Part shown: piece by piece, positions 39,909 to 63,943 of the stretch
Layout of the letters: the number at the start of each line of letters is the position of its first letter
How positions within the stretch are numbered: the stretch's first letter is position 1
Assembly (NCBI GenBank): GCA_022828085.1
Contig: JAJEIY010000049.1
Location: 148,007 to 212,006, forward strand
DNA: 64,000 nucleotides
Direction: 5' to 3'
Source of the DNA: Acidobacteriota bacterium
Lineage (GTDB): Bacteria; Acidobacteriota; Vicinamibacteria; Marinacidobacterales; Marinacidobacteraceae
Made by a program: the position numbers and the translations under genes
Notes under the pieces: model-generated
Database searches by the model: none
Told to the model about the DNA's origin: nothing
Seen by the model: the letters and a program-made list of their open reading frames with translations, nothing else

Positions 39909-39930
39909 GCGTCGTAACGCGGTTGCGCCC

Positions 39931-44012: not shown

Positions 44013-44112
44013 CGACGCGGGAAGTCCGCCGGCGCGTGCCTCATTGCCGCGCTCCGGGAGTTTCCGGCATGATTCCGGGCCACGCCTTCTTTCTCCGCAA
44101 AGGTTGAGCCCC

Positions 44113-46680: not shown

Positions 46681-46732
46681 CGCGAGAGCGCAGCGCATCT
46701 CGTGACGCTGCTCACCCGAGGTGGCGCGTACG

Positions 46733-46934
46733 GCTTGGAACGCCGGTCTCCGACCGGCACGCGGCCCGAAGGGCCGCAGGCGACGCGTCGCTGTTTGTCC
46801 CCACGGGATGCCGGGACAAGCACGTCCCCTCGCTTCCGGTCGGCACCGAGGGAGAGAACCATCCCGCAGGCCGGCGTCACGACGTGGGCGGTGCGGAGCA
46901 CCGCGCGTGCCGGTCGAAGACCGGCGTTCCAAGC
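46733..46934. repeat. REPIN-like 202-bp palindromic element, copy A
   Basis: The ends are inverted copies of GCTTGGAACGCCGGTC, each containing a first hairpin (GCCGGTC/GACCGGC) and, just inside, a second one: GCGGCCC/GGGCCGC on the left and GCGGTGC/GCACCGC on the right. The core has a third pairing (TTGTCCC/GGGACAA). It is the same length as the copy at 63664 and very similar to it along its whole length. No open frame or transposase lies inside. It fills most of the 282-base gap between two converging genes. Confidence 0.82.
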
Positions 46935-46962
46935 CGTCGCGCCATTCCGCGCGGCGCTCGGA

Positions 46963-48435
46963 TCAGTGGTGCGCCGGGATCGGTAGCGCCAGCACCGACG
47001 CCCGGGCCCGGATCATCATGTGGACCGCGGGGTCCGGGCGGAAGAAGGAGCCGGCGTGGCCCTGGTCGTACCCCAGGACGAGGAGGTCGCGGGAACCGGT
47101 CAGGCGGGCCAGTTCCCGCGGGGGATTCCCCTCCGCGCGGATGATGGGGACACGCACGCGATAAAGGTCGGCCATCCGCTCGATGGCGGAGAGGACCGAG
47201 GCCATGTCGGCGCCCTCTTCGAGACCGCGGCCGATGAAGGGAGGGGGCGTCACCACGACGGCGGCGAGGGGAACGCCGAACTGGCGCGACAGCCCGATGG
47301 CGGTGTCCGCGGCGCGCACGGTGCCCTCCACATCGGTGACCGGGACGACAAGCCGTTCCCAGGGGAAGCTGCCGCCGGGAATGAGCACGGGGCAGGAAAA
47401 GCGGGCCATGGTCGAAAGGAAGCGCGCCGCATTCAGGCCCATGCGCGCCAGGAAAGAGGGTTCCCCATGGTCGATCAGGACGCAGCCGGCGTCCGGGCGC
47501 GCGGCGGCGAACGGGTCGTCGCCGGGCGCTACCCGGGAGAGCCGTTCCGCCGGCACGTCGAAATCGGCCGGAGGCTCGACCCCCTCCGGGGCCACGATCC
47601 TCAGACGCCGCGCCCGGGAGGTGCGGAACAGGTACTCGGCTTCCCGCCAGGCGATTTCGGGAAGGGCACGTTCGGCGAAGACCACGATGTGGCTCCCGAA
47701 CTGAAGGGGAAACAGCGACTTTCCCTCCCGCAGGAACTCGGCGGCGCCGGGCGCCACCTCGGGCTCGCCGGTGATGAGGAGCCGGTCCCCCGCCTCGATC
47801 ACCGCGTCGCCGTCGGGAACAACGAAGCGGTCCCCCCGGTAGATCCCGGCCACGAGCCACTTGCGGGCGCCGAGGTCCCGGAGCTTCACGTTCACCGCGG
47901 GTGAGGTCGGCAACACCTGGATCTCCCTGATCTCGCCGCGGCCGAGGCCGAGCGAAGTCGCCACCTGGTGGGAGCGCTCGACCCGGTTGCGGATCTGGCT
48001 CGCGATCACCCCCGGGCGCGCGATGCTCTCGGCGCCGGTGGCGCGGAGGCGTCCGGCCCGGTGCGATTCGCGGAGCGTGCCGATCGTGGAGGGACGGGGG
48101 GTGAGTTCGGCCGCCACCCGGCAGACCTCGATGTTGACGGTGTCCTGGTCGGTGGCGGCGATCACCCACTCGGCGCCGTCGCCGGCGGCCTCGCGGAGCG
48201 CGAGCGCGCTCGTGCCGTCGCGCAGCAGGGCCTCGAAGGTCTGGTGCGGCGCATCCTCGCGGAGCCGTTCCAGCTTGTTCGGGTCGGTGTCCAGCACCAC
48301 CACCCGCCGCTCGCCGGCGAGCTGGCGGGCAAGCTCCCGGCCGGTCTGCCCGGCGCCGACGATGACGACCCGGGGGAGGTCGTGCGGCGTCGCCGCGTCG
48401 CTCTCCGCGACGGGTTCCGGGCGGCGTTCAGGCAT
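46963..48435 (-). CDS. TrkA/RCK-domain protein with universal-stress-like C-terminus
   Basis: This 490-residue protein begins with an NAD-binding RCK domain (VVIVGAGQTGRELARQL, then the acidic VLDTD turn, residues ~20-140), followed by an RCK-C domain (~160-240: VKLRDLGARKWLVAGIYRGD, then LLITGEPE). The second half (~240-490) has strands such as HIVVFAERALPE, RLVVPVTDVEGTVRAADTAIGLS and LLVLGYDQGHAGSFF, like universal stress proteins. There is no membrane segment, so it would regulate a separate channel or transporter; none is nearby. The fusion may link nucleotide sensing to ion transport. Confidence 0.78.
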   Translation of the reverse strand: MPERRPEPVAESDAATPHDLPRVVIVGAGQTGRELARQLAGERRVVVLDTDPNKLERLREDAPHQTFEALLRDGTSALALREAAGDGAEWVIAATDQDTVNIEVCRVAAELTPRPSTIGTLRESHRAGRLRATGAESIARPGVIASQIRNRVERSHQVATSLGLGRGEIREIQVLPTSPAVNVKLRDLGARKWLVAGIYRGDRFVVPDGDAVIEAGDRLLITGEPEVAPGAAEFLREGKSLFPLQFGSHIVVFAERALPEIAWREAEYLFRTSRARRLRIVAPEGVEPPADFDVPAERLSRVAPGDDPFAAARPDAGCVLIDHGEPSFLARMGLNAARFLSTMARFSCPVLIPGGSFPWERLVVPVTDVEGTVRAADTAIGLSRQFGVPLAAVVVTPPPFIGRGLEEGADMASVLSAIERMADLYRVRVPIIRAEGNPPRELARLTGSRDLLVLGYDQGHAGSFFRPDPAVHMMIRARASVLALPIPAHH

Positions 48436-48547
48436 GGAGACGGAGAGGCCGAAACCCGGGCGGACTCAGGCCCCGGAGGCGGTTGTCCGAGGGGGCGGAC
48501 CGGAGCGGGAGCCCCGGCCCGGCCTCAGGCGAACGCGGAAGGGAAGC

Positions 48548-49324
48548 CTACTGTGCGAGCGTTGCCGTGATTTCCAGCACTGCGTCGGTGTCCCAGGGCG
48601 GCAGCATCACCCTGGTGATGGGCTCCTGGGGGTCCGTCGGAGTGTCGGGACCGGTTCCCTCGGTTCCGCCGACCGCCATGTAGGGCTCGCCGTCAACGAC
48701 TCCGGCGTCGTACATCTCGGCCCGGACCGTGAGCGTCTCCAGCCAGTTGCCGTCCTCGTCCATGGCGCAGACGTTGAAACCGATGAACCAGTCCGGGCTC
48801 GGCGTGAGTTTCTGGGCATAGCTGAGGCAGGGAAACTCCGAACTCAGGGTGAATTGCCCGGCCTGCAGAATTCCCTGAACCGCGCTGAAGTCCTCCGCAA
48901 GGACCATCCAGCCCATCTCCTCGGCCTCCTCCGCCAGGTCGTGCCCATGGCCGTCCCAGGCCAGGTGCTCAAGACCCTCGGTAGCCATGCCGCCTTCTGC
49001 CCAAAGCATTTCGCCCAGGGGATGGGCCACGAACGCGAGTTCCTCTTCGGATCGCGCGCCCTCGGGATAGGGCGTGGCTCCGAGAATCTGCACAAAAATT
49101 CCATCAGCGCTCCCATAGTTCGCCTTCACCGAGCCCAGTGGGAAACTGTAGGTCGCCATCGTGGGCTCATCGGGTTCCGGAGCCGGGGCCGGGGCGGGCG
49201 CCGGCGCGGGTGCAGGCGGCGGAGCCGGGGCGGGCGCCGGGGCGGTCCCGGAATCACCTCCGCACCCTCCCAAGACGAGCGCGCCGACCAGCGCGATTCC
49301 CATCCCGATGTTTCGTGTCTTCAT
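48548..49324 (-). CDS. Spondin-domain lipoprotein, copy 1
   Basis: This 258-residue protein has a lipoprotein signal (VLGGC, Cys about 20) and an Ala/Pro repeat linker (~28-52). A spondin-N-like domain follows: YSFPLGSVKANYG, then PLGEMLWAEGG, EFPCLSYAQKLTPSPDWFIG and NVCAMDEDGNWLETLTV. The PSPDWF motif is the clearest mark of this family. Spondin-N domains bind extracellular matrix or cell-surface partners in animals; their role in bacteria is not established. The ATG at 49324 has a strong GGAGGATC site 9 bases before it. It shares the family and linker type with the gene upstream. Confidence 0.8.
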   Translation of the reverse strand: MKTRNIGMGIALVGALVLGGCGGDSGTAPAPAPAPPPAPAPAPAPAPAPEPDEPTMATYSFPLGSVKANYGSADGIFVQILGATPYPEGARSEEELAFVAHPLGEMLWAEGGMATEGLEHLAWDGHGHDLAEEAEEMGWMVLAEDFSAVQGILQAGQFTLSSEFPCLSYAQKLTPSPDWFIGFNVCAMDEDGNWLETLTVRAEMYDAGVVDGEPYMAVGGTEGTGPDTPTDPQEPITRVMLPPWDTDAVLEITATLAQ

Positions 49325-49455
49325 GGCGGATCCTCCTTTGGTTTGCGAACGGTTCAATTCCCGTAACGCTTCCACCGCGGTCGAAATGTACCGTACTGCG
49401 TTGCGATTCGGAAGGGCTCGTATGCGGAGTGGGTTAGCCCTCTCCGTCACCTAAC

Positions 49456-50208
49456 CTACTCCGCCTTGCGCGTCGCGGTGAGCGGATACGCGACGGCGGG
49501 CGCCGCGAGGTAAGGCGGGGCGTCGAGGACGGTGATCGGCGCGCGAGGTTCGGTGTCGGCCGACTTGACCATGAAGCCCTCGCCCTCGGCGGTGCCCGCG
49601 TCATGGGCGATCACGTCGACGCTCATGCCGTCGAGCCAGCGGCCGTCCTCGTCCGTGGCGCAGGCGTTGCTGAGGCCGATGAACCAGTCCGGACTCGGAG
49701 CGATGGCCTGCGCGTAGGTGAGGCAGGGCCGCTCCAGGTGCATCTCGATCGAGGGATCGGGGCTGAGGAAGATCTGCAGGAACTCTCCGAGGTTGGTGGC
49801 GATCACCTCCATTCCGGCGGCCTCCGCCTCGGCAACGAGCGCCGCCGACGCTCCCGTCTCCGCAAGCAGCTTCAGACCATCGGAGGCAGACTCGCCCAGC
49901 GTCCACGGGGCGGTGTCCCGCGGGTGGGCGATCATCGCGAGCGGGAACGCGAAGTCCACTCCCTCGGGGAGCGAACCCGGGACCCGTGGGCCCAACTGGG
50001 CCACGGGCTGGTCGAAGGTGTAGGTGGCGGTCTGGGGTTCCGGTGGCGGTGGGGGAGGCGTGGGCGCCGGGGCCGGCGCCGGTGCGGGAGCCGGCGCTAC
50101 CGGTGTGGAATCGCCATCGTCACAGGCCGTGATCGCGACGCCGGCAGCGAGCAGCAAGCCGGCGAGAAGGGGCAGGGTGGTGGACGGGCGGACGGGGAAC
50201 TGCAACAC
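49456..50208 (-). CDS. Spondin-domain lipoprotein, copy 2
   Basis: This 250-residue paralogue of the preceding protein has a signal peptide with lipobox ITAC (Cys about 29), an Ala/Pro linker, and the same domain with RPCLTYAQAIAPSPDWFIG and NACATDEDGRWLDGMSV. The two cysteines near the PSPDWF motif are conserved between the copies and could form a disulfide. The GTG at 50208 is chosen because a GGAG lies just before it and it gives a good signal peptide; a TTG at 50256 would add 16 residues. A hairpin with a T-rich tail lies in its upstream region. Confidence 0.78.
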   Translation of the reverse strand: MLQFPVRPSTTLPLLAGLLLAAGVAITACDDGDSTPVAPAPAPAPAPAPTPPPPPPEPQTATYTFDQPVAQLGPRVPGSLPEGVDFAFPLAMIAHPRDTAPWTLGESASDGLKLLAETGASAALVAEAEAAGMEVIATNLGEFLQIFLSPDPSIEMHLERPCLTYAQAIAPSPDWFIGLSNACATDEDGRWLDGMSVDVIAHDAGTAEGEGFMVKSADTEPRAPITVLDAPPYLAAPAVAYPLTATRKAE

Positions 50209-50246
50209 GAAACTCCGTGGGGTGGGGCCGGAGAGACCCAGCCGGG

Positions 50247-50275
50247 GAAGAAACAAAACCGGGCGGGGCGCCCGG
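50247..50275 (-). terminator. Intrinsic terminator (or attenuator)
   Basis: On the minus strand CCGGGCG and CGCCCGG form a 7-bp stem with a 3-base loop, followed by GGTTTTGTTTCTT. This is the only hairpin with a clear T-rich tail found in the window. It can end the gamma-glutamyltransferase transcript or act in the leader of the spondin gene. Confidence 0.7.
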
Positions 50276-50283
50276 CGCGCGGA

Positions 50284-50310
50284 AGTCTATATTCTGAAAC
50301 CGAGTTTCAA
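50284..50310 (-). promoter_or_regulatory. AT-rich promoter-like segment with palindrome
   Basis: In a GC-rich setting this stretch reads, on the minus strand, TGAAACTCGGTTTCA (a 15-base palindrome, 50295-50309) followed by TATAGA. It is a candidate promoter with an operator-like site for the spondin gene. It lies upstream of the terminator hairpin, which would then be in the leader. Confidence 0.35.
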
Positions 50311-50312
50311 CT

Positions 50313-52058
50313 TCAAGCCGTCGCCACCGCCACGCCCGTGCCGGCGCGCACCGGATCCACACCCGGCTCGAACCGAACCCGGTCGGGAGTGGCCGAGACC
50401 CGGATGCCGCTCGCCCGCCCGAAATGCCCGGTCAGGGCCGTCTCCCGGCGCACGAGCACCTGGTGGCCCCGTTCTTCGAGGCCGCGGGCGACCCTTCCGC
50501 ACTCCGGCGTCCGCTCGTCGAGGGTCAGGGGACCCACGTCGGCATGGAATCCCGGGCCGCCCACCGCGTCCTGGATGGAGGTCCCGCGGTCCACCAGGCG
50601 CGCGACCCCCACCACCACCGCCGAGATGAGGCGGCGTCCCCCCGGCGATCCCACCACCGCCCAGGGAATCCCGTCCCGAAGCAGGATGGCGGGCGCCGCG
50701 GCGTGCAGCGCCCGGCGGCCGGGGGCCGGTGAAATCCGGCGGCCCGGCCTGGGATCGAACCACATCATGCCGTTGTTCAGGGGATACCCGAGCCCGGGAA
50801 CCGCGAAGGCGGATCCGAAGCGGCCGCCGAGCGTCCCGGTCAGCGAGACGGCCATACCCTCCGCGTCCATCGCGTTGACCTGGGTCGTGCAGTCCGCCGT
50901 GGGTGCACCGGACGGCGGAACGCCCGCGCTTTCCCCGGTCCCGGGCGGTGGGGGTTCGCTGGGGGTGTCGAGACGACGGCCATCCGGAGCTACCCCCTGT
51001 CGCCGCTCGCGGAGGTAGTCGGGATCAAGCAGACCGGGAAGCGGCACCGGCACGCTATCGGGATCGCCCAGATGCCGGAAGCGGTCCCCGAACGCGAGCC
51101 GCAGCGACTCCGCCGCGAGGTGGAGGAAACGGACTTCCCCCTCGGGCGATCCGGAAGGCGGCCCCACCGGAGGAAAAGCGTCCAGGTGGGAGAGCGCCGC
51201 GGCCAGGGTGGGGCCGCCGGAGTTGCCGGGCAGGGTCGCCACCGTGTGGTCCCGGAACCCGAAGGCGAGCGGCGGAACTTCGCGGACGGCGGCGGCTTCG
51301 AAGTCGGATTCCGAGAGGATGCCCCCCGCCTCGTTCACCGCTTGGAGCAGCCGGCGGGCGATGGGGCCCCGATAGAAGGGTTCCGGGCCCTCGTCGGCGA
51401 GCACCCGCAGCGACCCGGCGAGTTCGGGGTTGCGGAGGCGGTCCTCCTCACCCAGGGGGACAAAGGGAATCCCGTCCCCCCGCGTGTAGAGCGCGAACGC
51501 CGCCGGCGAGAGCCGGAGCCGGCGGTAACCGGCCGCTGCGTGCACCGCGAAGACCCAGTCGGGAACGAACCCCTCCTCCGCCAGCCGCACCGCGGGTTCG
51601 ACCACGGCGGCGAACGGAAGCCGGCCGAAGCGCTGGTGGAGTTCCACCAGGGTTGCCGGTGCGGTGGGAACCAGCACGCTGAGCGGCCCGGTTTCGGCGC
51701 GGTCGCCCTTGGTCGGAGGAAAACCGTAGAGGCCTCCGCCAACCCCTTCGAGGGGCTCGAACATCTCCTCCCGGGTCCGCGCCGGACACCGCGCGCTGCC
51801 GTCGAGCGCGGTGACCCGGCGGGTCTCCGGTTCGAACACCACGGCGTAGGCGGTGCCGCCCAGCCCGTTCATGGAAGGCTCCACCACCCCCGCGGCCAGG
51901 ACCGCGGCCACCGCCGCGTCGGCCGCGTTCCCCCCACCCGCCAGGATCCCGGCCCCGGCGCGCGCGGCACCCGAGGTCATCGCCGTCACAGCCCCGCCGT
52001 TTCCGGCAACGTGCGAGCGGCCGGGAAGGGGGACCTGCTCGCGTAGCGAAGCGCTCAT
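50313..52058 (-). CDS. ggt: Gamma-glutamyltransferase
   Basis: This 581-residue member of the GGT family of N-terminal nucleophile hydrolases has the autocleavage site at DCTTQVNAMD, with the nucleophile at Thr391, and the downstream substrate and oxyanion segments PLNNGMMWFDP and VVGSPGGRRL. The usual TTH reads TTQ, a tolerated variant. It should cut gamma-glutamyl peptides such as glutathione, or hydrolyse similar amides. No signal peptide is evident at the N-terminus, so it may be cytoplasmic, unlike most GGTs. The ATG at 52058 overlaps the dehydratase stop (ATGA). A terminator follows 38 bases after its stop. Confidence 0.9.
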   Translation of the reverse strand: MSASLREQVPLPGRSHVAGNGGAVTAMTSGAARAGAGILAGGGNAADAAVAAVLAAGVVEPSMNGLGGTAYAVVFEPETRRVTALDGSARCPARTREEMFEPLEGVGGGLYGFPPTKGDRAETGPLSVLVPTAPATLVELHQRFGRLPFAAVVEPAVRLAEEGFVPDWVFAVHAAAGYRRLRLSPAAFALYTRGDGIPFVPLGEEDRLRNPELAGSLRVLADEGPEPFYRGPIARRLLQAVNEAGGILSESDFEAAAVREVPPLAFGFRDHTVATLPGNSGGPTLAAALSHLDAFPPVGPPSGSPEGEVRFLHLAAESLRLAFGDRFRHLGDPDSVPVPLPGLLDPDYLRERRQGVAPDGRRLDTPSEPPPPGTGESAGVPPSGAPTADCTTQVNAMDAEGMAVSLTGTLGGRFGSAFAVPGLGYPLNNGMMWFDPRPGRRISPAPGRRALHAAAPAILLRDGIPWAVVGSPGGRRLISAVVVGVARLVDRGTSIQDAVGGPGFHADVGPLTLDERTPECGRVARGLEERGHQVLVRRETALTGHFGRASGIRVSATPDRVRFEPGVDPVRAGTGVAVATA

Positions 52059-53044
52059 CCGTCGTGCGCAGCGAGGAGCGCGGGATCGGCGTTGCCGCCG
52101 CAAAGGGGGGTGAGGATCTCGCGGCCACGAAAACGGTCGGGATGCTCGAGGAGCGCTGCGATCCCGGCGGCCCCCGCCGGTTCCACCACGACTCCGAGCG
52201 TCCGGTGAAGGAGGCGCACCGCCTCGCGAAGGGATCCCTCGCCAACTTCCACCACTTCGTGCACGACCCGCTGCATGAGGGGAATGGCCTCGGGCACCGG
52301 AACCCGGACGGCGATGCCGTCGGCGATCGTGGCCGGGGCGGCTTCGGCGGGAGATGGATCCCCCGACTCGAAGGCGCGGCGCATAACCGGCGCTTCGCGC
52401 GCCACCACGCCCACCACCGACACCTCCGGAGCAGCGTGGCGAAGCCAGAGCCCCATGCCCCCGATGAGCGCACCGTTCCCGACCGGAATCAGGGCGGTGT
52501 CGGCACGAAAAACGGCCTCCACGCACTCGAGCGCGATCGTTCCGGCGCCCTCGGTGATCTCGGGCTCGCGGCCGTCCTCGACGAACTCGGCGCCACACTC
52601 CCCGGCATAGGCGAGGGCGGCCTCCTTGGCGGCGTCGAAGTCCTCCCCGACGAGGCGGACCTCGGCGCCGAGGTCCCGCATGGCGCGGACCTTGTCGGGA
52701 TTGGCGCGGAGGGAAGAGAACACCGTGAGCGGAATCCCGGACCGCCGAGCAGCCCAGGCGAGTCCCTGGCCGAAGTTCCCGGCCGATCCGGTCACCCAGC
52801 CCGGGGTTCCGGGAGGAAGGCCGCGAAGCCGCTCTTCGGCCTCCGGGCCCCGCCGGGCGCCGAACCAGCAGGCGCCCCGGGCCTTGAAGCTGCGGATCGG
52901 GTTCACGCACTCCACCTTCACGGTGACCCGGCAGCCGGTAGCGGCGCCGAGCGGATCCGATGCGAACAGCGGCGTATCCCGGAACTCCCGGGGGATGGCG
53001 GCGAGGGCGGCTTCGATTCCCTGCGGGGTCGGTTCGGACGGCAC
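52055..53044 (-). CDS. PLP-dependent threonine/serine dehydratase-like enzyme
   Basis: This 329-residue fold-type II PLP enzyme has the Schiff-base lysine K54 in NPIRSFKARGA, the carboxylate loop GSAGNFGQGLA and a glycine-rich PVGNGALIGG phosphate loop. It resembles threonine/serine dehydratases, which release ammonia and a 2-keto acid. A racemase or another beta-eliminating enzyme of the same fold is the alternative. No regulatory ACT domain is present. The start is a GTG at 53044, since upstream sequence has no usable ATG and no conserved residues. It is coupled to the GGT gene and divergent from the asparaginase-family gene. Confidence 0.82.
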   Translation of the reverse strand: MPSEPTPQGIEAALAAIPREFRDTPLFASDPLGAATGCRVTVKVECVNPIRSFKARGACWFGARRGPEAEERLRGLPPGTPGWVTGSAGNFGQGLAWAARRSGIPLTVFSSLRANPDKVRAMRDLGAEVRLVGEDFDAAKEAALAYAGECGAEFVEDGREPEITEGAGTIALECVEAVFRADTALIPVGNGALIGGMGLWLRHAAPEVSVVGVVAREAPVMRRAFESGDPSPAEAAPATIADGIAVRVPVPEAIPLMQRVVHEVVEVGEGSLREAVRLLHRTLGVVVEPAGAAGIAALLEHPDRFRGREILTPLCGGNADPALLAAHDG

Positions 53045-53166
53045 GGCGGGGATGGTAAGGCGCGGATCGCGACAACGACCGTCGAATACACTTCGGCTCC
53101 CGTCTGGAAGAACCGTCCCGTGCCGCCGGAAGGCCGGGCATGCAAGAGGCGGGTGAGGGAAGACCG

Positions 53167-54303
53167 ATGAAGACCAAAACACCCTGGACCGGCCGCAACA
53201 TCAGCCGCCGGCAGTTCGTCCGGACCGGCGCCGCGGGCGCGGCCGCCCTCGGCGCGGCGGCGTCGGGAGCACCGGCCGTCCAGTCGTCCGGCCCGAGGCC
53301 CGTGGTGATCGCCTCCGGGAACGGCAACCGCTACAAGAACGGCGGCGACGAGGTGGTCGTGGAACGCGCCTTCCGCATGATGACCGAGGGGAAGGACATC
53401 CTCGAGAGCCTGATCGAGGGCGTGAAGATCACCGAACTCGACCCCGAGGACGCGAGCGTCGGATTCGGAGGCCGCCCCAACGCCGACGGCGTGGTCCAGC
53501 TCGATTCGTGCTGCATGCACGGCCCCAACCGGCGCGCCGGCGCGGTGGCCGGGATCGAGGGCGTCCGGACCCCGGCGTCCGTGGCCTACCAGGTCCTCCA
53601 GGTCACCGACCACCACCTGCTGGTCGGGAAGGGCGCCCAGCACTTCGCCCGCAACATGGGTTTCAAGGTCGAGGACGACCTGAACACCCCCCGGTCCCGC
53701 GAGATGTGGCTCGAGTGGAAGCGGCGCATCGATCCGGGGCATTACCTCGATCCCAAGAAACGGGCGGCCGCCGGACATGAGGCCGGCCTCTCCATGGTCC
53801 GCGACGGCCTGATGGACGAGGAGGAGTACTACGGGACGATCAACTGCGACGGCCTGAACGCGAACGGCGACCTCGCCGGCGTCACCACTACGAGCGGCCT
53901 GGCCTGGAAGATCCCCGGGCGCGTCGGCGATTCGCCGATCCTGGGCGCGGGGCTCTACGTGGACAACGCCGTCGGCGCGGCGGGCTCCACCGGCCGTGGC
54001 GAGGCCAACCTCTACGGGCTGTGCTCCTTCCTCATCGTGGAGGAGATGCGGCGCGGCGCCCATCCCAAGGACGCGGCGATGACCGCGCTCGCGCGCGTCA
54101 AGGAAAACACCGTCGAGAAGCGCCTCCTCAACAGCCGGGGCCTGCCCGCGTTCGGGCTTTCCTTCTACGTGGTGAACAAGGCGGGCGTGCACGCCGGTGT
54201 CTCCATGTATACGAGCGCCCGCTCCAGCTACGCCGTGTGCGACGAGAACGGTCCCCGCTCCGAGCCGATGGAGCCCTTCCTGGAGGGGAGTGCCTCGGAC
54301 TGA
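53167..54303 (+). CDS. Tat-exported N4-(beta-GlcNAc)-asparaginase/isoaspartyl peptidase family hydrolase
   Basis: This 378-residue Ntn hydrolase starts with a twin-arginine signal (SRRQFVR at 13-19, then an Ala/Gly-rich hydrophobic segment). It then has the family segments SVGFGGRPNADGVVQLD, the GTINCDG strand and the autocleavage region AGVTTTSGLAWKIPGRVGDSPI, with the nucleophile among Thr240-242, most likely Thr240. It closely follows aspartylglucosaminidase-like enzymes, which cut the bond between asparagine and GlcNAc, or isoaspartyl bonds. Export folded by Tat agrees with autoprocessing in the cytoplasm. The ATG at 53167 has a GGGAAGA site before it. It starts the plus-strand group to 59608. 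Confidence 0.88.
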   Translation: MKTKTPWTGRNISRRQFVRTGAAGAAALGAAASGAPAVQSSGPRPVVIASGNGNRYKNGGDEVVVERAFRMMTEGKDILESLIEGVKITELDPEDASVGFGGRPNADGVVQLDSCCMHGPNRRAGAVAGIEGVRTPASVAYQVLQVTDHHLLVGKGAQHFARNMGFKVEDDLNTPRSREMWLEWKRRIDPGHYLDPKKRAAAGHEAGLSMVRDGLMDEEEYYGTINCDGLNANGDLAGVTTTSGLAWKIPGRVGDSPILGAGLYVDNAVGAAGSTGRGEANLYGLCSFLIVEEMRRGAHPKDAAMTALARVKENTVEKRLLNSRGLPAFGLSFYVVNKAGVHAGVSMYTSARSSYAVCDENGPRSEPMEPFLEGSASD

Positions 54304-54670: not shown

Positions 54671-54704
54671 GTCCGGCTCCAGCAAAACCGAACCTCCCGA
54701 ACTC

Positions 54705-56003: not shown

Positions 56004-56024
56004 ACCAGTTCAGGAAACCAGACA

Positions 56025-57122: not shown

Positions 57123-57142
57123 CGTCCCGTTCGGCAGGGCAG

Positions 57143-59608
57143 ATGACCTGGAGGACGTCGGGCCGAACGGCCGGGTGCAGACGGCTCACGGCGATCCTGG
57201 CGGTTGCGGTCGCCGTTGCCGCCGCGGCGAGCGCCCAATCCGAGACCGTCCTCGTTCGCGGGCGGACGATCCACACCGTCACGGGCGGGACTCTCCAGAA
57301 CGGCGAGATTCTGATCCGGGACGGGATCATCGAAGCGGTCGGCCAGTCCCTGGACGTTCCCGCCGGGGCCGCGGTTTACGAAGCCGAGGTGGTGATCCCG
57401 GGCCTGATCGATGCGCACGCGCACGTCGCCCTTGACCGTTCCAGCCGCTCGCGCATTCCCGGCCCGGTGACCGCCGAATGGAAGGCCGTGGAACACCTGG
57501 ACCTGTCGGATCCCATGCTCCAGGTGGCGCTTTCGGGAGGTGTGACGTCGCTGGTGACGCGCTCGGGCAGCGGCATCATTTCGAGCGGACAGGCGGTAGC
57601 GCTCAAAACGAAGCGCGCGCCCGGCGAGGAGATGATCCTCAAGCCCTACGTGGACCTGAAGATGGCGGTGCGGCCGCTGATCAACCTGCGGCCCGGCGAG
57701 ACGCCGCAGACGGTGATGGGGTGGTACGCCACCGCTGACGACTACTTCCGCCGCGCCGCGGCCTACGTGCGGGAGCAGGAAGCGCACGCCGCCGGAGAGG
57801 GAGCGGCGCCCGAGCGCGACGAGCGCCTCGAGGCCTTCGCGGCCGTGATCCGGGGCGAGGTCATGGTGCACGCCCACGCGCACTATCCGAGCGAGGTGAT
57901 GATGGTGCTGCGCCTCGCGCGCAGGTACGGCTTCTTCGACCGGCTGGCCCTCGCCCATGCGGAGGAGATCTTTCCGCTCACCGAGCTGCTCGCGGGAACC
58001 GAAATCGTCCCGGTCATCGGCCCGATGATGATCGTCCAGTACTGGGGTGATCCGGAGCCCCTGAACCTGCTGAAGGACCTCCTGGACGCGGGCGTACACG
58101 CCAGCATCCAGACCGACATGTCGAACCAGCACTTCAAGGACTTCCGGGAGTACGGGGCCTTCCTGGCGCGGCACGGGCTCACCGACGACCAGGCCCTCGA
58201 AATCATGACGATCAACGGAGCGCGCGCCATGATGCTCCAGGACCGGATCGGCAGCATCGAGGTCGGGAAGGACGCCGATCTGGTGCTGCTCGACGGGCAC
58301 TTCCTCGATCTCGCCGCCGACCGGGTGGAGCGGGTGCTCGTGGACGGGCGGCTCGAGTACGAGCGGGACCGCGTGTTTCAGTCCGCGCGGCCCCGCGCCG
58401 TGGGGCCGTTCACTCCGGTGACCGGTCGGGTCACCGCGGAGGACGCAAGCTTCGCCATCACCGGCGCCCACGTGTTCACCGTGAGCAGCGGCGCGATCCC
58501 GAACGCCACCCTGGTGGTCGAGGACGGCCGCTTCACCCGGGTGGAGGCGGACGCGGCGCCGCCCGCGGGGATGGCGGTCATGGACGCCGGGGGCAGGGTG
58601 GTCATGCCGGGAAGCGTGATCGCCCGCGCCTTTCCCAACGACTGGATCGGCGACCTCAAGTGGCAGGTGCAGAACGATGAGATCACCGCGCCGGTGGTCC
58701 CGGAGATGAACGCCCTCTATGCCGTGGACCCCTGGTTCCCCTCGTATCGGGTGAACACCACGATCGGGGTGACCGCGATCCACGTCACCCCCGGCACCCG
58801 CAACCTGGTGGGCGGGAACGGCGTCCTGGTGAAGACCCCCGGTCTCGACTTCGAGAAGATGGTGCGCCGCGAGCCCGCCAGCCTGGTGTTCGCCCTCACG
58901 GCTTCGGCGCTCCGGGAATGGACGGACGAGGCGGGAGCGGAGCTGACGCTCGAGAGCGCTTCGGCAATGATCCGGGCGGCGCTGGATGCCGCGCGGCGCT
59001 ATGCAGAGTCGGATGAATCCCGGGAGTACGACGCGCGCCTCGAGGCGCTCCTGCCGTTACTCCGGCGCGAGGTGCCGGCGATGGTCCACGCGGACCGCGT
59101 GGCGGAGATCGAAGCGGCGCTCAGCCTCGCGGAGGACTACGGCCTGCGGCTCGTGATCACTGGCGGGGTCGAGGCGCACCGGTTGGCTGGCCGGCTGGCG
59201 GCGGCCGGTGCGGGCGTCATTCTGGGGAACTCCGGAAGCTACGCGTCGGATATCCGCGGGGGAGGTGAGGGTTGGAGCGTCGAGGGGCCCGCCATCCTGA
59301 ACCGGGCCGGGGTCAAGGTGGCGTTCTACGGCCCGGGCGCCTCCCGGCGCGCCTCCCCCATCGGGCGGCTGGGCGGCGAGCCCATCCTCAACTCCGCGTG
59401 GGCCTTCCGCAACGGCGTGCCGGAGGTGGATGCGCTCCGGATGGCGACGCTGAACGCCGCCGAACTCGTGGAAATGGGCGACCGGATCGGAAGCATCGAA
59501 CCGGGAAAAGACGCCGACTTCGTGATCCTGGAGGGCCATCCGTTCGACTACCGGGTCCTGCCGCAGTGGGTGTTCGTGGACGGGCGGCTGGAAGCGGGAC
59601 CTCGCTAA
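57143..59608 (+). CDS. Secreted tandem amidohydrolase
   Basis: This 821-residue protein has a signal peptide (~1-31, after ASA) and two amidohydrolase barrels in tandem. The first (~35-425) keeps the metal site: IDAHAHVALD (H92, H94), then HAHAHYP, ALAHAEE and the SIQTDMS aspartate. The second (~440-820) has lost the HxH pair (VVMPGSVIARAF), keeping one His in AMVHADRVAEIE. So the second domain is probably structural or regulatory. These enzymes hydrolyse amide or related bonds in peptides or cyclic amides. The ATG at 57143 precedes the signal peptide and follows the PaaK-like stop by 20 bases. Confidence 0.88.
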   Translation: MTWRTSGRTAGCRRLTAILAVAVAVAAAASAQSETVLVRGRTIHTVTGGTLQNGEILIRDGIIEAVGQSLDVPAGAAVYEAEVVIPGLIDAHAHVALDRSSRSRIPGPVTAEWKAVEHLDLSDPMLQVALSGGVTSLVTRSGSGIISSGQAVALKTKRAPGEEMILKPYVDLKMAVRPLINLRPGETPQTVMGWYATADDYFRRAAAYVREQEAHAAGEGAAPERDERLEAFAAVIRGEVMVHAHAHYPSEVMMVLRLARRYGFFDRLALAHAEEIFPLTELLAGTEIVPVIGPMMIVQYWGDPEPLNLLKDLLDAGVHASIQTDMSNQHFKDFREYGAFLARHGLTDDQALEIMTINGARAMMLQDRIGSIEVGKDADLVLLDGHFLDLAADRVERVLVDGRLEYERDRVFQSARPRAVGPFTPVTGRVTAEDASFAITGAHVFTVSSGAIPNATLVVEDGRFTRVEADAAPPAGMAVMDAGGRVVMPGSVIARAFPNDWIGDLKWQVQNDEITAPVVPEMNALYAVDPWFPSYRVNTTIGVTAIHVTPGTRNLVGGNGVLVKTPGLDFEKMVRREPASLVFALTASALREWTDEAGAELTLESASAMIRAALDAARRYAESDESREYDARLEALLPLLRREVPAMVHADRVAEIEAALSLAEDYGLRLVITGGVEAHRLAGRLAAAGAGVILGNSGSYASDIRGGGEGWSVEGPAILNRAGVKVAFYGPGASRRASPIGRLGGEPILNSAWAFRNGVPEVDALRMATLNAAELVEMGDRIGSIEPGKDADFVILEGHPFDYRVLPQWVFVDGRLEAGPR

Positions 59609-59643
59609 ACCGCGGACGCCGAAAGGCGCGTTGGCGCACACGA

Positions 59644-59843
59644 GCCTGGAACGCCGACCTCTGGTCGGCACAGCGGGCCGGAGGCCCGCGCACGGCGTGC
59701 CGCTACCCGCCTTGCGGGACAGAGGTCCGGAACGTCCAGTCAGTTGCGTTGCACCAAGAGAACAGCCCCATCGGACAGGTCAGCGTTACGCCGTGCGCGG
59801 CGCGGAGCGCCGCGCGTGCCGGTCGGAGACCGGCGTTCCAAGC
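59644..59843. repeat. REPIN-like 200-bp palindromic element, copy C
   Basis: The left end starts GCCTGGAACGCC and the right end finishes GGCGTTCCAAGC. The first left hairpin is GCCGACC/GGTCGGC, with changed but still paired bases relative to the other copies. The second hairpins are GCGGGCC/GGCCCGC on the left and GCGCGGCGC/GCGCCGCGC on the right. The core differs from copies A and B. It lies between two converging genes. Confidence 0.78.
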
Positions 59844-59853
59844 CGGCGGTGTT

Positions 59854-61302
59854 TCAGAGGGGGTCGGACTGGGCGCCTTCCTGGAATGCCCAGATCCGGT
59901 TGCGCGTGAGGATGTAGAGGACGCCGTCCTTGACGACCGGGGTGCAGTAGACGGAGGCGCCGAGGTTGTACTCCCCGAGCACCTCCAGCTCCTTGCCCGC
60001 GCGCAGAACCACGACGTCCCCGTCCTCGTCGCCCAGGAAGACCTTGCCGTCGACGACGAAGGGGGAGCCCCACACCGCGGCGAAGGTGTCGTAGGTCCAG
60101 AACTCCTCGCCGGTCTCGGGGTCGAGCGCGTGGAGGAAGCCCGACAGGCTGGAGATGTAGAGCACGCCGTCAGCGATGGCCGCGGTGGACATGGTGCGGT
60201 AGAAGTCCTCGCCGCCGCGGTGCCACACCGCGTGCGTGTCGGTGACGTCGCCGGTCCCGGTCGCGTCGATCACCCAGAAGTGGCCCGGCGCCTCGCCGTG
60301 CTCCGGGTCCTGGCCGACGCCGATGTACACCTTGTCGTTGAAGACGACCGGCGTCGAGAGGATGTTGTTGCGCGTCCCGCGACCGCCGAGGATCCACTCC
60401 GAGTCCTTCGGGTTGCAGTCGAACTGCCAGATGAGCTCGCCCGTCGCGGCATCGAGGCTGTAGATCACGCCGTCGCCGCCGGGGAAGATGACCTGCGCCC
60501 GTCCGTTGATCACCCCGTAGGCCGGGTTGGTCCACGCGCCGTGCAGGACGTTCTCGCCGACCGGGGTGCTCTCCCACAGCAGTTCGCCGGTGTTCTTGTC
60601 GAGGGCGATGAAGTCGGGCGAGAAGGGCGAGGGGACGTTGACATGTCCCTCGTCGACGCCATTGCTCGTGACCGTATAGAGCACGTCGCCGATGATGAGC
60701 GGCGATCCGGTGGCGAGGTTGTGCGGGAAGACGTCCAGCTCCCCGATCATGTCGTAGGACCAGATGATGTCTCCGGCAATCTCACCGGTGTCTTCCTCGT
60801 CGGTGAAGGGGCCGTCGTTGCCGTTGGCGAAGCCGTTCGCGTCCAGACAGACGATGTGCGCCTCGTTGGAGACGTAGTAGATGCGGTCCCCCTCCATGTA
60901 CGCGGTCGAGCAGACTCCCTGCCGCGGCCAGTCGTTGACCCTGCCGGCCGGGAGCTTCGGATGCACCATCTGCCAGAGGAAGACGCCGGTGTCCGCCGCG
61001 AACGCCATGACGACGCCCCGGTCGCCCTCGATGGAAGGGTCGCGAAGCCCCTCGTTGTTGGTGCCGACGTAGACCCGGTTGTTCGCCACCACCGGGCCGC
61101 CATAGGCCTGCGAACCGACCGGCTGGGACCAGAGGACGTTCCGGCCGGTGTCCACGTCCCAGTCGCCGACGACGCCCGTCTCGTCGGACACCATGTTCCG
61201 GGACGGCGTGTTGCCGAACATCGCGATTTCCTGGGACGAAGCCGCGCCAGGCGCCGCCAGTGCCGCCAGGACTCCGAGAATCAGCGCCTGTCGTATTTCC
61301 AT
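59854..61302 (-). CDS. Secreted PQQ-like beta-propeller protein (outer-membrane assembly-like), copy 1
   Basis: This 482-residue protein has a signal peptide (~1-24, after ASS) and repeated strands of the PQQ-binding-like beta-propeller kind (for example GDVLYTVTSNG, then NTGELLWESTPVG, AATGELIWQFDC and PETGEEFWTYDTF). There is no PQQ-enzyme catalytic Asp-Glu pattern and no second domain, so it is likely a ligand-binding or scaffold propeller rather than a dehydrogenase. It begins at an ATG that overlaps the stop of the upstream propeller gene (TGATG), so the two are co-translated. Confidence 0.85.
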   Translation of the reverse strand: MEIRQALILGVLAALAAPGAASSQEIAMFGNTPSRNMVSDETGVVGDWDVDTGRNVLWSQPVGSQAYGGPVVANNRVYVGTNNEGLRDPSIEGDRGVVMAFAADTGVFLWQMVHPKLPAGRVNDWPRQGVCSTAYMEGDRIYYVSNEAHIVCLDANGFANGNDGPFTDEEDTGEIAGDIIWSYDMIGELDVFPHNLATGSPLIIGDVLYTVTSNGVDEGHVNVPSPFSPDFIALDKNTGELLWESTPVGENVLHGAWTNPAYGVINGRAQVIFPGGDGVIYSLDAATGELIWQFDCNPKDSEWILGGRGTRNNILSTPVVFNDKVYIGVGQDPEHGEAPGHFWVIDATGTGDVTDTHAVWHRGGEDFYRTMSTAAIADGVLYISSLSGFLHALDPETGEEFWTYDTFAAVWGSPFVVDGKVFLGDEDGDVVVLRAGKELEVLGEYNLGASVYCTPVVKDGVLYILTRNRIWAFQEGAQSDPL

Positions 61303-63512
61303 CACCTGGGGTTCTCCATCACCTGCACGTTGTCGTAGTAGATGTCGATGGGCGAGTAGCCGATCAGGCCCGGGCTTCCCTGGCGCACCGGCTCCGGGTC
61401 CTCCACGGTCACGGTCCAGTCGTCGGGCTCGGCCTCGCCGCGCCGCCAGACCTTGCCGCGGATGAGCGCCCGGTCGTCGTCAACGTCCACCCGAAGCTTC
61501 AGCGTGTACCAGACGTCGGGATCCCACGCGAAGGGAAACCGCTCGGCCATCCGCAGCTCGGCGGCCCACGAGCGGACCTCGATCCGCTGGTGGTTTCCCT
61601 GGAGATCCATCGTGTAGCCGCTGTTGATGAGCCCGATATCGGGACGCCGCCGGCCCCGCTCGGTCGACATCACGTCGGCCTGCACGGAGTAGTCCGACAG
61701 GGTTGACGGGCCGATGTAGATGGCGTGCCGGTGGATGCCGGTACGCGACGCGCCTTTCCGGAAGAGCTGCTCGCCCCCTTCGTCCACGGCGGCCAGACTG
61801 CCGCCCCCGCCGATCCAGTGCGGCGGGCGGCCGTTCGCGAAGTCCTCGGTCCAGGGCAGCGGCGAGAAGATGCGCACCCGGGCGGCGGCCGACACGTCGC
61901 CCACCGTCGCGATGACCCGTCCCGCCTGGTTGGCGGCCCCGGAACTCGCCTGGAACTCGCCGTCTTCACCGAGCTGCGAGCCGGTCAGGCCATCGAGCGT
62001 CCAGGTCGCGGCCTGGTCCCCGGCCGGTTGTCCGTTCGCGTCGAATGCCAGGAGCCGGAAGTCGATCGCCTGGCCCGCGGACGCGATCACCTCCGCGGGA
62101 ACCACCTGCAGGCTGGCGACCGTTCCCGTCGGCGCGGTCTCGGGCCCGAGGACTGGGCTCGCGGCCGGCGCCGGGTCGAAGGGGGCGTCGGGATCGCCGA
62201 TGCAGTAGATGCCGGACTCGGCCGTGACGTAGAGGCGCCCGTACGCCGGGGCGAACGAACCGTAGATCTCCGCCTCGCGGCCGTCGGCCACCTCGATGTC
62301 GTCGCTGTCGAACTCGGTGACGCCGTCGGCGCCGGGCTCCAGGATGTGAACGTTGCCGTTGACCTCGGTGACGTAGAGCTTGCCGTCGGCCCAGACCGGC
62401 GAGGACTTGCCGACAGTCCCGACGCTGTACTCCCAGACGACGGCTCCGCTGGCGGCGTCGATGGCCACCAGGTTCGCGGAGTTGTCGATGACGTAGAGCC
62501 GGCCGTCCTTGATGAGCGGCGAGGAGAACCCGACCGCGAGCTCGTCGATGCGCCACTTCTCGCCGGTGGCGGTGATGTCGCCGCTCCCGGTCGCGTCGAT
62601 GGCCACAACCCGTCCCAACGCTCCGGCGTCGAGGTTCTCTTCGCTGTGCGCGATGTAGACGATGTCGCCGTCGATCACGGGCGAGACGTTGATGCCGCGC
62701 TTGCTGAGGTGGAACTCCCAGACCTTCTTGCCGGTGCGGGCCTGCATCGCGTAGACGCGGCCGTCAGCGTTGCCGTCGATGAGAAGCCGCTGGCCGCCCA
62801 CGACAGCGACGATGGGTACCGACTGCGTGTTGAGGTCGGCCGGCGTGCCGCCCGGCGTCGCGACCCAGCGAACGTGTCCGGTCGCCTTGTCGAGCGCCAC
62901 GTAGCGGTGGCGCGGCGGCCCGCCCAGATCCCCCCACGCCGAGCCGATGACGCTGAGCACGAGCCGATCCTCGTCGATGATCGGCGTCGACGTCCGCCCT
63001 CCGTATCCGGACGCGCGGCCGAGGTCCTCGCCGAGCCGCCAGCTCCAGACGACGGCCCCGTCACGATCGAAGGCGTGCAGGTGGCCGTCCACATTCAGGG
63101 CGTAGAGGTGGCCGGTCTCCGGATCGCCGGTGACGCTGCCCCAGCCGACCCGGTTGTACGGGACGGTTGTGTTGAAGACGCTGAACGTGTGTTCCCAGAG
63201 CTTCGCGCCGTCCTCCGCGTTCCAGCAGGTGACGATCTCCTTCTTGGCCACCCCGTCCCCGGTGCGGCCGTTGGCGCAGACGCGCCCGTCGAACACGGCG
63301 GGGGTCGAGCGGCCGATGTATTCCTGGAACCAGACGAGGTTCTCGCCGTCCACCGACCAGTTCGAAACGAGGCCGGTCTGGTCCGATACGCCGTTCTGCA
63401 TCCGGCCGCGCCAGCTAGGCCAGTCCTGCGCCGCCGCGCTCGCGGCCGGCAGCGCGAGGAACGAAACAAGAAGCGTCACGCACGCGGCGGCGCCGTGAGT
63501 CGCCCTGGTCAT
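61302..63512 (-). CDS. Secreted PQQ-like beta-propeller protein with C-terminal beta domain, copy 2
   Basis: This 736-residue protein has a signal peptide (~1-30, after AAAQ). A PQQ-like propeller (~30-470) has the blade motifs GHVRWVATPGG, TGKKVWEFHLSK and SGAVVWEYSVG. The C-terminal ~260 residues form Ig- or lectin-like beta regions (QVVPAEVIASAGQAIDF, then a PWTEDFANGRPPHW segment and the IEVRSWAAELRMAERFPF strand) that resemble carbohydrate-binding or laminin-G-type folds. It may bind a polymer at the cell surface. The ATG at 63512 starts the signal peptide. It is the first gene of a two-gene operon. Confidence 0.82.
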   Translation of the reverse strand: MTRATHGAAACVTLLVSFLALPAASAAAQDWPSWRGRMQNGVSDQTGLVSNWSVDGENLVWFQEYIGRSTPAVFDGRVCANGRTGDGVAKKEIVTCWNAEDGAKLWEHTFSVFNTTVPYNRVGWGSVTGDPETGHLYALNVDGHLHAFDRDGAVVWSWRLGEDLGRASGYGGRTSTPIIDEDRLVLSVIGSAWGDLGGPPRHRYVALDKATGHVRWVATPGGTPADLNTQSVPIVAVVGGQRLLIDGNADGRVYAMQARTGKKVWEFHLSKRGINVSPVIDGDIVYIAHSEENLDAGALGRVVAIDATGSGDITATGEKWRIDELAVGFSSPLIKDGRLYVIDNSANLVAIDAASGAVVWEYSVGTVGKSSPVWADGKLYVTEVNGNVHILEPGADGVTEFDSDDIEVADGREAEIYGSFAPAYGRLYVTAESGIYCIGDPDAPFDPAPAASPVLGPETAPTGTVASLQVVPAEVIASAGQAIDFRLLAFDANGQPAGDQAATWTLDGLTGSQLGEDGEFQASSGAANQAGRVIATVGDVSAAARVRIFSPLPWTEDFANGRPPHWIGGGGSLAAVDEGGEQLFRKGASRTGIHRHAIYIGPSTLSDYSVQADVMSTERGRRRPDIGLINSGYTMDLQGNHQRIEVRSWAAELRMAERFPFAWDPDVWYTLKLRVDVDDDRALIRGKVWRRGEAEPDDWTVTVEDPEPVRQGSPGLIGYSPIDIYYDNVQVMENPR

Positions 63513-63943
63513 TCGCAATCTGAGATGGGGTGTCGGCCGTGCGTCAACCGGGCATTTTAGCAGCCCGTGGTCAGCCCGCATGAGCGCCGAGGTCCCCACC
63601 GGGAGAATCGCCCATGCGCGCGTCCTCCTACGCACCCCGCCCGTCATGAAAATGGCGGAAACGGCTTGGAACGCCGGTCTCCGACCGGCACGCGGCCCGA
63701 AGGGCCGCAGGCGACGTGCCGCTGTTTGCCCCCGCGGGACGCCGGGACAAGCACGTCCCCTCTGTTCCGGTTGGCTCCGAAGGTGCGAACCAACTCGCAG
63801 ATCGGCGTCACGACGTGCGCGGTGCCGAGCACCGCGCGTGCCGGTCGGAGACCGGCGTTCCAAGCCGACGGTGCCATCACGGCGCTTGGCCGACCCGCCG
63901 GACTGCCTTTTCACAGCAACTGGCCACCGAGGCATCGGGCCGG
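63513..63943. other. Intergenic stretch, 431 bp
   Basis: Apart from the dispersed element at 63664-63865, nothing further is seen. The 151 bases next to the propeller gene should hold its promoter, but I could not assign -10 and -35 boxes with confidence. Confidence 0.6.
63664..63865. repeat. REPIN-like 202-bp palindromic element, copy B
   Basis: Same length as copy A and similar throughout, including the core. The first hairpins are GCCGGTC/GACCGGC at both ends. The second hairpins are GCGGCCC/GGGCCGC on the left and GCGGTGC/GCACCGC on the right, with loop CGA where copy A has GGA. It lies upstream of the propeller operon and downstream of the gene that ends at 63944. Confidence 0.82.

What the first reader, a model, noticed from the sequence alone, without database searches (positions are those of the whole stretch)
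46733..63865. Dispersed palindromic repeats whose hairpin stems vary but stay paired
The elements at 46733, 59644 and 63664 and the tandem at 39777 share a two-hairpin end. The second stem has at least five sequence versions (GCGGCCC, GCGGTGC, GCGGGCC, GCGCGGCGC, CCGCTGCGC), each with a perfect complementary arm and a three-base loop. The first stem also shows paired change (GCCGGTC to GCCGACC with GACCGGC to GGTCGGC). Such covariation points to selection on structure, or to copying through a hairpin, in a REPIN-like family.
Basis: seen in the sequence. Interest (0 to 1): 0.7.

Follow-up and report, generated by a model that had tools for sequence, protein, structure and literature searches.

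The report
Two-hairpin mobile repeats beside their transposase
An Acidobacteria genome and its close relatives carry many copies of a short repeat, usually built of two adjacent DNA hairpins, which also flanks a transposase gene that likely copies it; in three genomes compared, the first hairpin's sequence differs between species while the second is a mixed pool of variants that the species share, which suggests that the enzyme may read the sequence of one hairpin and only the shape of the other.

Summary
Confirmed and extended. The window's four sites hold eight copies of a unit: GGAAC foot, 7-bp hairpin, 1-4 nt, second hairpin. A 15-nt probe of its 5' end (at most one mismatch) hits 485 places in this 3.57-Mb genome (reversed control 12) and 155-496 in each of seven congeners. 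In 100 exact hits, hairpin 1 is fully paired in 81, hairpin 2 in 68 of 88 evaluable (control 0 of 84). The predicted RAYT gene exists: one was found, above NCBIfam's REP_Tyr_transpos cut-off, nearest solved structure TnpA-REP, flanked by inverted copies. An orthologous site differs in element content in six readable congeners; one lacks it. So this works as a REP/REPIN-RAYT system. Unusual: the foot is GGA[A/G/C]C, not GT[A/G]G; the second hairpin is frequent beside RAYTs of this genus (30 of 45 copies) and rare elsewhere (1 of 21, 2 of 164); hairpin 1 is species-specific (F 0.52) while hairpin 2, a few bases away, is not (F 0.05). Against: many copies are decayed, and a unique-arm test is weak. 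New variant of a known kind.

The parts
39777..39822 (+). two-hairpin REP-like unit, copy 1 of a head-to-tail pair: GGAAC, stem1 GCCGGTC/GACCGGC (loop tccg), stem2 CCGCTGCGC/GCGCAGCGG (loop gga)
39857..39909 (+). two-hairpin unit, copy 2 of the pair (feet 86 nt apart), with CGGCTT before the foot; stem2 CGCGCGGCGC/GCGCCGCGCG
46731..46936 (.). 206-bp REPIN-like element: two inverted two-hairpin ends, feet outside; stem2 GCGGCCC (left) and GCGGTGC (right); between convergent genes
   Evidence: absent at the orthologous site of congener G006
59642..59845 (.). 204-bp REPIN-like element; left stem1 GCCGACC/GGTCGGC with stem2 GCGGGCC, right stem1 GCCGGTC with stem2 GCGCGGCGC; between convergent genes
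   Evidence: congener G004 has a related element in the opposite orientation at the orthologous site
63662..63867 (.). 206-bp REPIN-like element; stem2 GCGGCCC (left) and GCGCGGTGC (right)
44044..46680 (+). neighbouring gene (DUF4953 Met-zincin, DUF5117), ends toward the 46731 element
46963..48435 (-). neighbouring gene (TrkA_N, TrkA_C), convergent on the 46731 element

Best explanation
These are REP/REPIN-type repeats: single copies, tandem copies and inverted pairs of a unit made of a GGA[A/G/C]C foot and, as a rule, two adjacent hairpins, which also flank a RAYT-family transposase gene in this genome and its congeners and are likely copied by that transposase acting on the folded single strand. 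Shown: the unit, its copy number, its pairing, the RAYT and its flanking copies, content differences at an orthologous site between congeners, and the agreement of foot class with RAYT clade. Inferred: the RAYT (HUH plus one tyrosine) would bind foot plus hairpin 1, cut and rejoin the single strand, probably at the replication fork as in the IS200/IS605 family; hairpin 1 would co-evolve with the enzyme and so differ between species; hairpin 2 would be kept as a structure whose exact sequence matters little, perhaps as a second contact, as a foldback that helps the strand fold, or as an RNA element between convergent genes.
For: RAYT: L031:1222-1806 passes NCBIfam NF047646 (91.6 bits, cut-off 80) and Pfam Y1_Tnp; NHVH and the tyrosine invariant in 27 of 27 aligned relatives; only convincing PDB hit 4er8 TnpArep, E 1.5e-6. 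Flanks: four units upstream and two inverted units downstream in G000. In 80 RAYT loci (of 342 found), GGANC plus a perfect 7-bp hairpin occurs 162 times in 102,586 flank bases (58 of 80 loci) against 14 in 214,469 bases further off; other feet at the same offset 0-7 times. RAYT-flanking stem 1 equals the genome's majority stem in the three genomes sampled: G000 (GCCGGTC, 57 of 79 intact copies), G004 (GCCGACC, 31 of 39), G002 (GCCGGC-ttca, 26 of 35). Foot class follows RAYT clade, also where one genome has two RAYTs (G004, G005). Probe hits: congeners 155-496 (controls 9-22), other genera of the family 91 and 34 (22 and 14). Site 46731 is unoccupied in G006 and holds other units in G001, G002, G003, G005 and G007; G004's contig ends there. 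Stem 1 F 0.521, stem 2 F 0.050 between genomes (shuffle maxima 0.096 and 0.067).
Against: No movement was observed. At the unoccupied site only the right junction aligns cleanly; the left flank has diverged. 22 of 80 RAYT loci show no such hairpin under the strict rule. 27 of 89 G000 copies lack a perfect second stem of at least 7 bp. Unique-arm test weak. Stem 1 does not map one-to-one on RAYT clade: GCCGGC-ttca flanks RAYTs of two clades (G001; G002 and G005). Beyond the family the probe still hits 4-79 times, in some genomes well over control (G047 61 against 13). The tree neither shows nor excludes one origin of the second hairpin. The genome is a 91%-complete assembly in 93 contigs.
Confidence: 0.85

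Rival explanations
1. The second hairpins stay paired without selection: when a strand folds back during replication, one arm is copied from the other (template switching), so a mutation in one arm is written into both.
For: Many distinct perfectly paired versions, 24 distinct perfect second stems in 116 copies; 22 of 47 single variants are already paired over at least 7 bp.
Against: Mismatched and hybrid-arm copies are common (15 of 88 with one mismatch), so such correction would have to be inefficient. This does not exclude it.
Confidence: 0.2
2. The repeats are kept for the host as bidirectional transcription terminators or mRNA stabilisers between convergent genes, and the RAYT is incidental.
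For: Three of the window's four sites lie between convergent genes (39777, 46731, 59642). GC-rich hairpins.
Against: No run of T directly follows the hairpins of the window's eight copies (read by eye); element content at one orthologous site differs from the window's in six of six readable congeners and one has none; the repeats flank the RAYT and their foot class follows its clades.
Confidence: 0.12
3. The units are ordinary MITEs of an unrelated DDE transposon whose inverted ends happen to fold.
For: The 206-bp elements have 33-34-nt inverted ends, 97-100% complementary.
Against: Tandem and single units outnumber inverted pairs (14 tandem and 11 inverted neighbour pairs, 53 of 100 copies without an exact-probe neighbour within 400 nt); the same unit flanks a Y1 transposase, and hairpins with a like foot recur beside its relatives. 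DDE transposases were not searched for.
Confidence: 0.03

Closest known systems
REP sequences and REPtrons of TnpA-REP/RAYT (Nunvar 2010 PMC2817692, passages; Quentin 2018 PMC6006769, abstract and two sections)
   Same: High-copy foot-plus-hairpin repeats that flank a low-copy Y1 HUH transposase in inverted orientation; transposase and repeat are described as associated and co-evolving.
   Different: Foot GGA[A/G/C]C, not GT[A/G]G (though Pseudomonas REPs written GTAGGAGC contain GGAGC); a second, variable hairpin follows.
REPINs (Bertels and Rainey 2011, PMC3116915, passages)
   Same: Inverted pairs with a spacer that folds; compensatory changes in the folded spacer are called common there.
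   Different: Pairs are a minority here; usual spacing about 206 bp; each end carries its own extra hairpin.
TIRYTs/TIRtrons (Di Nocera 2013 PMC3733652, section read, figures not held)
   Same: Tyrosine transposase genes flanked by inverted repeats, some called double palindromic; one group is from Acidobacteria.
   Different: Their shared motif is GGGGWSAS and they are mostly subclass 2.1 with a C-terminal domain (PMC6006769). Sequences of the double palindromes could not be compared, so an overlap with the present repeats is not excluded.
TnpA-Y1 subclass 2.4 (PMC6006769)
   Same: NH[IFV]H and YIxNNP signatures, median length 194 aa, scattered over phyla.
   Different: Invariant W is followed by M in 20 of 27 relatives and by Q in 3; foot not GT[A/G]G. 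Subclass was judged from the paper's table, not with its HMM.
TnpA-Y1 class 3 (PMC6006769)
   Same: REPtron-like, present in Acidobacteria, about 600 hairpins in Solibacter usitatus.
   Different: Y----Q signature and CnGA foot; here Y---NP and GGA[A/G/C]C.

Membership tests
RAYT / TnpA-REP | curated profile match | tested here: met
   NF047646 91.6 bits over cut-off 80; Y1_Tnp 31.6 over 23
RAYT / TnpA-REP | HUH motif and catalytic tyrosine followed by NP | tested here: met
   NHVH and Y...NP invariant in 27 of 27
RAYT / TnpA-REP | low copy number, gene flanked by inverted REP-like repeats | tested here: met
   one match in G000; flanks
canonical REP | 5' tetranucleotide GT[A/G]G | tested here: not met
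   the foot reads GGAAC after CGGCTT, CTTAGG or GAGCCT in the window's copies. In 80 RAYT loci GGANC hairpins 162 against GTAG 3 and GTGG 7, but with the stem fixed five bases after the foot's start, which is not the usual place for GTAG
canonical REP | GC-rich palindrome with short loop | tested here: met
canonical REP | hundreds of dispersed copies | tested here: met
   485 probe hits against 12
REPIN | inverted REP pair with folding spacer | tested here: met
   11 inverted neighbour pairs among 100 copies, all feet outside, none feet inside; consensus fold of 17 elements. Most copies are not in such pairs.
REPIN | the pair is the unit that moves | not testable with these tools
   presence/absence seen at one site only
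IS200/IS605 type transposition | single-strand cutting and joining | not testable with these tools
   needs biochemistry

The most novel reading that the evidence does not exclude
The unit is a two-part address. The transposase reads the sequence of hairpin 1, which each species has changed across its genome by paired substitutions, while hairpin 2, a few bases away, is read by shape alone and keeps one pool of paired variants across species. Since a sweep by one founder copy would have carried its hairpin 2 along, hairpin 1 must have changed in parallel in several subfamilies or been converted in place; two likely orthologous copies show a changed hairpin 1 beside a kept hairpin 2 (G000 C21:30642 against G004 C7:158051, identical second hairpin; and the copy next to the RAYT, same inner 8 bp).
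Probability: 0.35. Interest if true: 0.65.

Novelty: new variant of a known kind. Interest (0 to 1): 0.5.

Why it matters
REP/RAYT systems are widespread bacterial repeats, yet how a domesticated transposase and its hairpins change together is open. This genus gives several RAYT lineages with different feet and hairpins in near relatives, sometimes two in one genome, plus a second hairpin whose sequence is free but whose pairing is largely kept: a natural set of matched and mismatched substrates for binding and cleavage tests. RAYT relatives with GGA[A/G/C]C feet, from records labelled with many phyla, would be missed by searches for GT[A/G]G.

Tried and rejected
Rfam over the window: no match at gathering scores. 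Covariance model R1 over the genome: only 150 of 13,169 candidates were scored, and the model rewards pairing, so it was not used for statistics. Unique-arm shuffle in two fixed layouts: weak (4 of 25 and 4 of 14 perfect; 109 and 103 of 1000 shuffles reach it; with all copies, 26 of 50 and 58 of 71 perfect, 0 of 1000; of 194 copies 52 had other layouts, 17 no stem 1, 4 were short). Wobble test for RNA against DNA: single mismatches G-T/T-G 9 against A-C/C-A 6 in stem 2, and 6 against 2 in stem 1; inconclusive. Shared insertion sites by flanks among held copies: most flanks are themselves repeats, so few likely orthologous pairs were readable. Single origin of the second hairpin: unresolved. 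Structure prediction was not run. Rows dropped: 9 copies with broken stem 1 and 3 truncated, short copies 5 (G000) and 3 (G002), and copies with two or more stem-1 mismatches 6, 4 and 6 (G000, G002, G004); its arm exchange used only copies with a perfect stem 2, 56 copies without the constant frame for the stem-1 table, and 173 of 194 copies kept for stem 2, 116 of 194 copies with both stems perfect; L245 was left out of alignment A2 because its stretch has a stop codon.
Full report
What is there. The window is a stretch of a 3,565,431-base, 93-contig, 91%-complete genome. The closest named relatives by RAYT are records titled Acidobacteria MAGs (JAJDUD010000004 at 88%, MPMW01000095 at 82%); their contig positions agree with congeners G004 and G001, so the genus is taken to be Acidobacteria. 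The finding's elements are all present. The unit reads, on the strand with the foot: CGGCTT (six of eight window copies), GGAAC, 7-bp stem 1 (GCCGGTC or GCCGACC) with loop tcc, tct, ttc or tccg, then 1-4 nt, then stem 2 of 7 to 10 bp with a 3-base loop. Eight copies lie in the window: two head-to-tail at 39777-39909 and three inverted pairs of 204-206 bp. Three of the four sites lie between convergent genes; the fourth (63662) lies in the 5' part of a mechanical ORF on the minus strand and was not assigned.

Copy number. CGGCYTGGARCGCCG with at most one mismatch is found 485 times in G000 against 12 for the pattern read backwards. In 60 genomes the seven congeners have 155-496 (controls 9-22), two other genera of the family 91 and 34 (controls 22 and 14), and the rest 4-79 (controls 0-44), some well over control, such as G047 with 61 against 13. 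The first 100 places listed in G000, all exact matches, were taken as a sample chosen by the 5' 15 nt alone.

Pairing. In that sample stem 1 is 7 of 7 paired in 81 of 100; stem 2 is a perfect hairpin of at least 6 bp in 68 of 88 evaluable copies, has one mismatch in 15 and is not found in 5; the same scan 45 nt downstream gives 0 of 84. With a 7-bp minimum, stem 2 is perfect in 62 of 89 copies of G000, 25 of 37 of G002 and 37 of 44 of G004; controls 0 of 6, 1 of 36 and 0 of 44; among copies with a perfect stem 2, arms exchanged between copies with different 5' arms pair in 194 of 3440, 185 of 3545 and 169 of 3135. Stem-1 positions 5-6 pair in 129 of 138 copies (shuffles: mean 56.6, maximum 74), within G000 in 81 of 85 (maximum 59), within G004 in 39 of 44 (maximum 32), and in G002 in 9 of 9, which is uninformative because they do not vary; 56 further copies lacked the constant frame. 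Of 66 distinct stem-2 starts, 15 of 19 recurrent (by majority) and 22 of 47 single ones pair over at least 7 bp, against 899 of 19,531 with a foreign 3' part. Against this, with rows collapsed to unique arm pairs within two fixed layouts, 4 of 25 and 4 of 14 are perfect and about one shuffle in ten does as well: many copies are decaying and there the arms do vary independently. These counts do not correct for shared descent of copies; the difference between genomes in stem 1 is the better evidence for paired change.

The transposase. One Y1_Tnp gene was found in G000, at C83:11289-11873. Its protein passes NCBIfam NF047646, REP-associated tyrosine transposase, and its only convincing PDB match is 4er8, named TnpArep there (that it is the E. 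coli protein is recalled). NHVH, the tyrosine and a tryptophan are invariant in 27 aligned relatives; the residue after the tryptophan is M in 20 of 27 and Q in 3. The gene has four units upstream and two inverted units downstream. Among 80 loci (the best of 342) with relatives of this RAYT, from records labelled with many phyla, GGANC followed by a perfect 7-bp hairpin occurs 162 times within 700 nt of the gene (58 of 80 loci; 36 distinct stems, 34 starting GC), against 14 in twice as much DNA further off; feet GTAG and GTGG give 3 and 7 with the stem at the same offset, other feet 0-1. The stems were sought as perfect pairs on both strands, so their pairing is by construction and some places may count twice; the enrichment near the gene and over other feet is the evidence. 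Upstream of the foot the commonest bases are C, T, G (73%, 55%, 74%), so the extended foot is CTGGGAGC, possibly related to the GTAGGAGC of Pseudomonas REPs in PMC2817692 (passages seen).

Lineage match. Within the genus, RAYTs are flanked by: GGAAC with GCCGGTC (G000), GCCGACC (G004) or GCCGGC-ttca (G001, G002, second RAYT of G005); GGAGC with mostly GCCGGCC (G003, G005, G006); GGAGC with GCCGCTC-ttca or GCCGGTG-ttca (second RAYT of G004); GGACC (G007, one copy). The foot agrees with the supported RAYT clades (G000, G004, G001; G002 and second G005; G003, G005, G006), but GCCGGC-ttca occurs in two of them, so stem 1 does not map one-to-one on clade. The stem 1 beside the RAYT is the commonest in the genome in the three genomes sampled.

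Mobility. At the orthologue of 46731 G006 has no element: 6 nt separate aligned parts that lie 252 nt apart in the window; the right junction aligns cleanly, the left less so. G002 has one unit with other stems, G001 two, G005 a GGAGC unit, G003 and G007 arrays of GGAGC units; G004's contig ends there. At 59642 G004 has a related element in the opposite orientation (77% over 216 nt); G002, G003, G005, G006 and G007 have a cold-shock-like gene there (recognised by eye), some with repeat units beside it; G001 gave no orthologous match.

The second hairpin. Under one rule (at least 6 bp, loop 3-6, within 4 nt) it follows 30 of 45 hairpins beside ten RAYTs of the genus, 1 of 21 beside five RAYTs of other relatives and 2 of 164 at the 78 other named loci; the last two sets may overlap, since the contig of L175 has the length of G009's C55. 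One genus locus (G005, L256) has 0 of 4. Between three genomes the probability that two copies share stem 1 is 0.591 within and 0.146 between genomes (F 0.521, shuffle maximum 0.096), but for stem 2 it is 0.162 and 0.117 (F 0.050, shuffle maximum 0.067; G000 against G004 alone 0.004), in 116 of 194 copies with both stems perfect. Eight of 24 stem-2 sequences are shared by at least two genomes. Two likely orthologous copies show a changed stem 1 beside a kept stem 2: G000 C21:30642 and G004 C7:158051, with upstream flanks 78.7% alike over 94 nt, and the copy next to the RAYT, where stem 2 differs only in its outermost base. Limits: tandem copies are not independent, stem-2 sequences may recur by chance from a narrow GC-rich set, and only three genomes were sampled.

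How it likely works. From established knowledge of IS200/IS605 and E. coli TnpA-REP, the enzyme would bind foot plus hairpin in single-stranded DNA, cut nearby and join. That foot and stem 1 differ between species together with the RAYT's own flanking copies fits recognition of their sequence. Stem 2 keeps pairing with little regard to sequence, which fits recognition of shape, help in folding, or a role in RNA; the data do not choose among these.

Known work. GT[A/G]G is given as a defining feature of REPs (PMC3686654 and PMC2817692, passages); PMC6006769 (abstract, sections 12 and 15) reports subclass 2.6 and class 3 without it; PMC3733652 (abstract, sections 5 and 16) lists GTAG and CGTC families with complementary stem changes, and Acidobacteria TIRYTs and double palindromic TIRs whose figure was not held; PMC3116915 (passages) reports compensatory changes in REPIN spacers; PMC8049555 (passages) calls single REPs decaying remnants; PMC8266576 (passages) shows that GTAG and palindrome matter for cleavage. 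Searches whose listings showed no description of GGA[A/G/C]C-footed or two-hairpin REPs: (titles and abstract starts, and the papers above only as stated). PMC2267715 was seen only in a listing. The library lacks most subscription papers.

Verdict. The system works like REP/REPIN-RAYT; its enzyme meets the RAYT tests made here, while the repeat fails the literal GT[A/G]G test for canonical REPs and adds a second hairpin: a new variant of a known kind.

Noticed in passing
G000 loci, for example L028:1417 + and L018:1418 +: A second dispersed class in the same genome, GGAGC(GCCGGCC)tcc(GGCCGGC)ATCGC...GCGAAAC, although only one RAYT was found; in congeners G003, G005 and G006 this class flanks another RAYT clade, so here it may be an orphan of a lost or unassembled RAYT.
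   Followed up: partly
G000 contig ends, for example C43:3-57, C23:6-60, C64:2-56, C34:42314-42356: A number of copies sit at contig ends, so the repeats probably break the assembly and copy number is undercounted.
   Followed up: no
L321-L325, orthologues of window 59608-59854: Five congeners carry what looks like a cold-shock protein gene between the two convergent genes where the window has the 204-bp element.
   Followed up: no
L188:3660 -, L189:2006 -: Nitrococcus RAYT loci also show a second hairpin after a GGACC hairpin, of unrelated sequence: possibly a parallel case.
   Followed up: no
L395 (G004 C25) and L253 (G004 C2); L256 and L396 (G005): Two genomes hold two diverged RAYTs flanked by different repeat classes.
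   Followed up: partly
L260 (G009), positions 8-132: A RAYT contig of another genus of the family starts with five head-to-tail single-hairpin units of 31-bp period.
   Followed up: no
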